Below, piece after piece: positions 48,870-49,181 of a stretch of 64,000 bases of DNA. The stretch's first letter is position 1, and every line of letters starts with the position of its first letter. Below the pieces are notes generated by a model. That model did not search any database and was not told the DNA's origin. It was given only the letters and a program-made list of their open reading frames with translations. The translations under genes and the position numbers were made by a program. Where the stretch lies: NCBI GenBank assembly GCA_903929795.1, contig CAIYWC010000091.1, forward strand, positions 62,001-126,000. The letters are read 5' to 3'. Source of the DNA: an uncultured Myxococcales bacterium (GTDB taxonomy: Bacteria; Myxococcota_A; UBA9042).

Positions 48870-49181
48870 ATGAAGAAGACGCTTCCGAAGTTGAAGAAGA
48901 ATGCTGCGGATTTCCTGTCCTCGGAAGAGGGCGCGATCAGCGAGAAGCAGGAGGAGCGCGTCTCGACCTTCCTGACCCTCTCGGGCGGCGACAGCAGCCT
49001 GCTTCCGGGCGACGTGAACCTGTCGGCGGAGCACTGTTCGCACGGTTCGCACGGCTCGCACGGCTCGCACGGCAGCCACGGCTCGCATGGCAGCCACGGC
49101 TCGCACGGCTCGCACGGCAGCCACGGTTCGCACGGCTCGCACGGTTCGCACGGCTCGCACGGCTCGCACGGCTCCTGGTAA
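48870..49181 (+). CDS. His-Gly-Ser (SHG)x15 repeat peptide, 103 aa; putative RiPP precursor or metal-binding repeat peptide
   Basis: MKKTLPKLKKNAADFLSSEEGAISEKQEERVSTFLTLSGGDSSLLPGDVNLSAEHC-(SHG)15-SW; strong SD GAGGGGAG just upstream of ATG 48870. Confidence 0.88.
   Translation: MKKTLPKLKKNAADFLSSEEGAISEKQEERVSTFLTLSGGDSSLLPGDVNLSAEHCSHGSHGSHGSHGSHGSHGSHGSHGSHGSHGSHGSHGSHGSHGSHGSW
49038..49172 (+). repeat. 15 tandem 9-bp units encoding Ser-His-Gly
   Basis: (TCG/AGC)(CAC/CAT)(GGC/GGT) x15, in frame with the 48870 CDS. Confidence 0.95.

What the first reader, a model, noticed from the sequence alone, without database searches (positions are those of the whole stretch)
48870..49181. (SHG)x15 His-Gly-Ser repeat peptide: candidate novel RiPP precursor or metal-binding peptide
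The sequence encodes a 103-aa product with a charged, Cys-free leader-like N-terminus (MKKTLPKLKKNAADFLSSEEGAISEKQEERVSTFLTLSGGDSSLLPGDVNLSAEH), one Cys, then exactly 15 Ser-His-Gly triplets and a terminal Ser-Trp. The start has a strong SD. A leader plus a low-complexity core is typical of ribosomally made modified peptides. The register equals H-x-S repeats (x = Gly), recalling the radical-SAM-associated His-Xaa-Ser repeat (HxsA) precursors. However, no HxsB/C/D-like radical SAM gene is visible in this window, so any maturase would be unlinked or the function differs, e.g. Ni/Zn/Cu/heme binding. Gly at every third position would also permit a collagen-like or polyglycine-II fold.
Basis: partly seen in the sequence, partly recalled or inferred. 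Interest (0 to 1): 0.88.

Follow-up and report, generated by a model that had tools for sequence, protein, structure and literature searches.

The report
Unlinked HxsA4 His-Gly-Ser peptide precursor
This gene makes a small peptide whose second half is the same three amino acids repeated 15 times; it belongs to an already catalogued but uncharacterised family (HxsA4) that radical-SAM enzymes are thought to modify chemically, and those enzymes are present elsewhere in the same genome.

Summary
In detail: 48870-49181 (+) encodes 103 aa with 15 perfect Ser-His-Gly units ending in SW. Counting the preceding H-C-S there are 16 H-x-S motifs. It is a real, strongly constrained gene: in within-family pairs the repeat shows 7-19 silent codon differences and no amino-acid change, and 18 of 21 complete copies have exactly 15 units. 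It is a clear member of NCBIfam NF038313, HxsA4 (90.5 bits, cut-off 55), so the peptide is not a new family. In cousins, hxsA4 sits 74-455 bp after hxsB in operons whose gene order otherwise matches this genome's hxsA4-less cluster. HxsA4 and HxsB co-occur across the phylum (45 genomes both, 90 neither, 9 mismatched). Most likely it is a RiPP precursor whose His residues are modified by this set; a His(i)-to-(i+2) cross-link fits by analogy only, and product chemistry and function are unknown. By-product: the HxsB beside HxsD has lost its Aux I cluster cysteines but kept Aux II, as in 51 of 86 HxsBs examined.

The parts
48870..49181 (+). hxsA4 gene, 103-aa precursor peptide
   Evidence: NF038313 90.5 bits vs cut-off 55; only HxsA4 in this genome; purifying selection
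48870..49034 (+). leader, residues 1-55, with conserved LPKLKK...DFLSSEEGxIS block
   Evidence: leader alone has NF038313 as best family, E 0.0028; aligned leaders of relatives
49032..49037 (+). His55-Cys56 junction, end of the first in-register triplet (E-H-C)
   Evidence: H-C before the first Ser in nearly all HxsA4 of the class; Met instead of Cys in L107/L109/L123
49038..49172 (+). core: 15 perfect Ser-His-Gly units
49173..49178 (+). terminal Ser-Trp; Trp kept in nearly all complete copies of relatives
48860..48866 (+). Shine-Dalgarno AGGGGAG
   Evidence: sequence; kept family-wide
48798..48869 (+). 72-bp block before the start codon, almost invariant in the genus (probable promoter/5' UTR)
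   Evidence: alignment of five genomes; no Rfam match, no unusual fold, no second copy in the genome

Best explanation
The gene encodes a HxsA4-type RiPP precursor. Shown from sequence: a conserved ~55-aa leader, a His-every-third-residue core of conserved length, purifying selection on both, and a His-Xaa-Ser maturation set elsewhere in the genome (C189: radical-SAM rX, HxsC-like, HxsD, HxsD-like, HxsB; C97: HxsC4-like plus a second HxsB). In cousins the same genes form one operon with hxsA4. Inferred: the leader is bound by the HxsD/HxsD-like proteins and/or HxsB, and the radical-SAM enzymes work along the core, modifying the 16 H-x-S motifs repeatedly. The most likely modification is an oxidative side-chain cross-link from His(i) to the residue at i+2, as in His triceptides, giving a stiff chain of small rings. 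The leader is presumably removed near His55-Cys56. The role of the product (structural, metal-binding or signalling) is not known. The confidence given is for 'HxsA4-type precursor matured by this enzyme set'; for the cross-link chemistry alone it would be about 0.45.
For: HxsA4 model hit 90.5 bits. HxsB 524 and 502 bits vs cut-off 370 in the same genome; HxsD over cut-off; HxsD-like 71.8 vs 41. hxsA4 74-455 bp downstream of hxsB on the same strand in 17 genomes of the phylum sample. Gene order HxsC-like - HxsD - HxsD-like - HxsB - A4 (rX first where covered) in G023/G030/G037 vs the same order without A4 on C189 of this genome; the C189-type HxsB itself (78-80% identical) lies about 6.5 kb from a same-strand HxsA4 in L107, L109, L123. 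Co-occurrence 45/2/7/90, Fisher p 2.5e-27; outside the class 20/2/5/89, p 8e-16 (not corrected for kinship). Zero amino-acid change in the repeat against 7-19 silent changes per pair. Precedent for His(i)-to-i+2 cross-links by radical-SAM enzymes: HaaB, ScaB, and Phe-Ser by MscB (PMC11002830).
Against: No chemistry is shown here; no paper in the library characterises any Hxs product. The HxsC-like genes are below the HxsC cut-off (105.6 and 98.6 vs 267.9). The HxsB in the HxsD cluster lacks Aux I ligands, the cluster that accepts the electron in SuiB (PMC9012708), which makes a standard oxidative cross-link by that enzyme less certain. No dedicated peptidase or exporter was identified next to the genes, though neighbours were not fully annotated.
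Confidence: 0.8

Rival explanations
1. The repeat is an unmodified metal-binding (Ni/Zn/Cu/heme) His-rich peptide; HxsB co-occurrence reflects another substrate.
For: 16 evenly spaced His; HxsB also occurs without a detected HxsA4 in 7 of 144 genomes.
Against: hxsA4 directly follows hxsB in 17 genomes; leader conservation. Metal binding after modification is not excluded.
Confidence: 0.1
2. Collagen-like or polyglycine-II structural protein.
For: Pfam Collagen 34.5 bits vs 27.2 on residues 59-101; Gly at every third position.
Against: No Pro anywhere in the repeat, leader belongs to HxsA4; distant HxsA4 proteins replace Gly by Ala/Ser while His stays every third residue.
Confidence: 0.03
3. 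A variant of the best explanation: the maturation in this genome is a different reaction from that in cousins, because the HxsD-linked HxsB has lost Aux I; the partners rX/HxsC-like or the second, seven-Cys HxsB do the cross-linking chemistry.
For: Gly-Ser-Gln at the three Aux I positions in 44 sequences while all other cluster Cys are kept; G012, G014 and G018 have HxsA4 and show only this HxsB type over cut-off.
Against: Aux I loss also occurs in HxsBs directly linked to hxsA4 (L198, L199, L202, L203, L205, L206), so it may not change the product.
Confidence: 0.25
4. Spurious ORF or repeat-expansion artefact.
For: Low complexity; long antisense ORFs across it.
Against: Syntenic and the most conserved gene of its neighbourhood in the family; selection evidence.
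Confidence: 0.01

Closest known systems
HxsA4, NCBIfam NF038313 (His-Xaa-Ser repeat protein)
   Same: Leader block, junction, His-every-third core, terminal Trp; 90.5 bits over a 55-bit cut-off
   Different: Perfect SHG repeat without the Ala/Ser/Asn variation of Omnitrophota relatives; less hydrophobic middle segment; gene unlinked from HxsB
HxsA/HxsB/HxsC/HxsD system (TIGR03979, TIGR03978, TIGR03977, TIGR03976)
   Same: HxsB and HxsD over cut-off in the genome
   Different: Precursor is HxsA4 rather than HxsA (8.5 bits vs 121.65); HxsC only a below-cut-off relative; an additional HxsD-like and a further radical-SAM gene rX
Triceptides / three-residue cyclophanes (HaaB, ScaB, MscB)
   Same: H-x-S spacing would fit a His(i) to i+2 cross-link
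   Different: Different radical-SAM families; HxsB is only a weak match to cyclophane maturase models (e.g. AmcB 46-51 bits vs 425); chemistry untested

Membership tests
HxsA4 (NF038313) | Profile score over the curated cut-off | tested here: met
   90.5 vs 55 bits
HxsA4 (NF038313) | Leader, not only the repeat, resembles the family | tested here: met
   Leader alone: NF038313 best family, E 0.0028, 18.5 bits; leaders of HxsA4 proteins from other families and classes match in a small set
HxsA4 (NF038313) | HxsB maturase in the genome | tested here: met
   Two copies over cut-off
HxsA4 (NF038313) | Gene adjacent to HxsB (common, not required) | tested here: not met
   At least 96 kb apart by contig coordinates; adjacency seen in 17 of 45 genomes with both
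HxsA (TIGR03979) | Profile score over cut-off | tested here: not met
   8.5 vs 121.65 bits
His-Xaa-Ser system | HxsD present | tested here: met
   54.3-55.2 vs 50 bits
His-Xaa-Ser system | HxsC over cut-off | tested here: not met
   105.6, 98.6, 98.9 vs 267.9 bits
Triceptide | Three-residue cyclophane in the product | not testable with these tools
   needs MS/NMR
Collagen-like protein | Gly-X-Y repeat capable of a triple helix | tested here: inconclusive
   Pfam hit on the repeat only; no Pro in the repeat

The most novel reading that the evidence does not exclude
A SPASM-derived maturase that has lost its Aux I cluster (keeping only the radical-SAM and Aux II clusters) processively modifies 16 tandem H-x-S motifs of an unlinked precursor, giving a rigid multi-ring peptide of fixed length by a route that does not use Aux I as electron acceptor.
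Probability: 0.2. Interest if true: 0.75.

Novelty: new member of a known kind. Interest (0 to 1): 0.4.

Why it matters
His-Xaa-Ser systems are annotated in many genomes, yet no product was found in the papers searched. This peptide is a clean substrate: one repeat unit, fixed length, the enzyme set in one genome, and natural enzyme variants with and without Aux I. It also shows that looking only beside the maturase misses precursors: in the window's whole family the precursor sits away from HxsB.

Tried and rejected
Structured RNA in the conserved 5' block: no Rfam match, fold z-score not significant. Other copies of that block (regulon): only one in the genome. Sigma-54 promoter reading of GGGCAC...TTTGCA: spacing wrong and not constant (G003 lacks one T); no sigma-70 match. 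A His-rich precursor next to either HxsB of this genome: none within the 6-11 kb read on either side. The radical-SAM gene that follows hxsA4 in G151: no clear orthologue in this genome, best 29 bits. Literature: only passing mentions of HxsA/B/C; the paper believed to have first described the system (Haft and Basu 2011) is not held.

Full report
OBSERVATION. Window 48870-49181 (+) translates to the stated 103-aa peptide: Cys-free residues 1-55, Cys56, 15 SHG units, SW. A 9-bp tandem array of 15.2 copies spans 49038-49174. The triplet before the first SHG is E-H-C, in register, so the core has 16 H-x-S motifs. An AGGGGAG Shine-Dalgarno lies at 48860-48866; an in-frame ATG at 48840 exists, but the GGGGA element before the 48870 ATG is what is kept across the family.

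IS IT REAL. In four genus members (G000, G001, G002, G004) pairwise comparison of the repeat gives 12-17 silent and no amino-acid differences; in five members of another part of the family, 7-19 silent and none. The leader shows 3-14 silent and 0-1 replacement changes within the genus. Of 21 complete copies read in the family, 18 have exactly 15 units; G015 and G019 have 11, one G006 copy has 18. The units use two Ser codon families, so identical amino acids are not the trace of a recent expansion. In the family the gene mostly keeps its place between an HD-domain gene and a sigma-70-like gene and is the best conserved protein there (98-100% in the genus against 68-92% for neighbours). A 72-bp block just before the ATG is almost invariant in the genus while the sequence further upstream has diverged.

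WHAT IT IS. NCBIfam NF038313, HxsA4, 90.5 bits against a cut-off of 55; HxsA, HxsA2 and HxsA3 are below theirs. The repeat carries most of the score, but the leader alone also has NF038313 as its best family, and the LPxLKK...DFLSSEEGxI block is shared with leaders from other families and phyla, including Omnitrophota proteins, one of which is named HxsA4 by its source. Pfam reports Collagen for the repeat only. A sequence search gave 314 related proteins.

MATURASES. The genome has two HxsB genes over cut-off: C189:161575-162975 (524.5 bits) and C97:75430-76857 (502.7; cut-off 370). On C189 the order is rX (radical SAM, 656 aa) - HxsC-like - HxsD (over cut-off) - HxsD-like NF038315 (over cut-off) - HxsB; on C97 an HxsC4-like radical-SAM gene precedes HxsB; a further HxsC4-like gene is on C187. 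hxsA4 is on C91, at least 96 kb from either HxsB by contig coordinates. No other HxsA4 was found in the genome.

LINK IN COUSINS. Among 57 relatives 45 have HxsA4 and 45 HxsB over cut-off and 44 HxsD-like. In G023, G030 and G037 the operon reads (rX where covered) - HxsC-like - HxsD - HxsD-like - HxsB - HxsA4, i.e. the C189 order plus HxsA4. In G027 HxsA4 lies in one cluster with rX, HxsC-like, HxsD and HxsD-like. In L107, L109 and L123 (MAGs titled bacterium, uncultured bacterium and Deltaproteobacteria bacterium) the C189-type HxsB, 78-80% identical, has HxsA4 about 6.5 kb downstream on the same strand. Across 144 genomes of the phylum: both 45, HxsA4 only 2, HxsB only 7, neither 90 (Fisher p 2.5e-27; outside the class p 8e-16); hxsA4 starts 74-455 bp after hxsB in 17 genomes. 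These p-values ignore kinship, but the pair is present or absent together in many separate families. In G151 HxsD, HxsD-like, HxsB, HxsA4 and the next radical-SAM gene follow each other nearly without gaps. In the window's family no HxsA4 was found beside HxsB.

MECHANISM. Shown: precursor architecture, selection, presence and linkage of the enzyme set. Inferred: leader recognition by HxsD/HxsD-like/HxsB; repeated modification of H-x-S. The best analogy is the His(i)-to-(i+2) carbon-carbon bond made by HaaB and ScaB, and the Phe-Ser bond made by MscB (PMC11002830). It is an analogy only; HxsB scores 46-51 bits on the cyclophane maturase model AmcB (cut-off 425).

A SIDE RESULT ON HxsB. Aligning 86 HxsB sequences, all keep the radical-SAM cysteines and the four that correspond to Aux II (461, 464, 470, 494 in the C97 protein as trimmed for alignment). 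The three that correspond to Aux I (388, 406, 473) are all Cys in 35, Gly-Ser-Gln in 44 (one well supported clade of 43 plus L198), and other losses in 7. The mapping of Aux I follows the anSME ligands Cys255, Cys261, Cys276, Cys330 (PMC6231123) and the seven-Cys SPASM motif; assignment of the other four to Aux II is from general knowledge of SPASM enzymes. The tree needs at least four changes of state, one of which may come from the spurious row L122_8484 (a wrong frame). The sampling is biased: 26 loci were fetched with the Gly-Ser-Gln type as query, and some are the same genomes as G handles, so the fractions are not frequencies in nature. In SuiB Aux I takes the electron from the radical intermediate (PMC9012708), so its loss in a conserved HxsB is unexpected and testable. 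G012, G014 and G018 show only this type over cut-off beside HxsA4, with 3-8% of each genome missing.

VERDICT. What is open is the chemistry and the role of the product.

Noticed in passing
G000 C189:161575-162975 (L018:11462-13024): HxsB with Aux I cysteines replaced by Gly, Ser, Gln but Aux II cysteines kept; same pattern in 44 of 86 aligned HxsBs and other Aux I losses in 7 more.
   Followed up: partly
48798-48869: 72-bp non-coding block before hxsA4 nearly invariant in five genus members while upstream sequence diverged; no RNA family, no fold signal, single copy in genome.
   Followed up: partly
49382-50047 (-): Sigma-70-like gene (region 2 and weak region 4) convergent with hxsA4 and kept beside it in most of the family.
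   Followed up: partly
L132 (G006) 2349-3350: Two hxsA4 copies in tandem with 15 and 18 SHG units.
   Followed up: no
L021 (C187) 8319-9338 (-): Orphan HxsC4-like radical-SAM gene (182.5 bits, cut-off 500) with no HxsB beside it.
   Followed up: no
L108: Contig titled Klebsiella pneumoniae MAG carries an HxsB identical to that of a member of the window's myxobacterial family (G005); the record name is probably wrong.
   Followed up: no
L160 (G031): HxsA4 with 31 uninterrupted SHG units, the longest in the class genomes read.
   Followed up: no
48284-49261 (-) and other overlapping ORFs: Long antisense ORFs across the repeat (e.g. CEPCEPCEP) look like by-products of the high-GC repeat.
   Followed up: no
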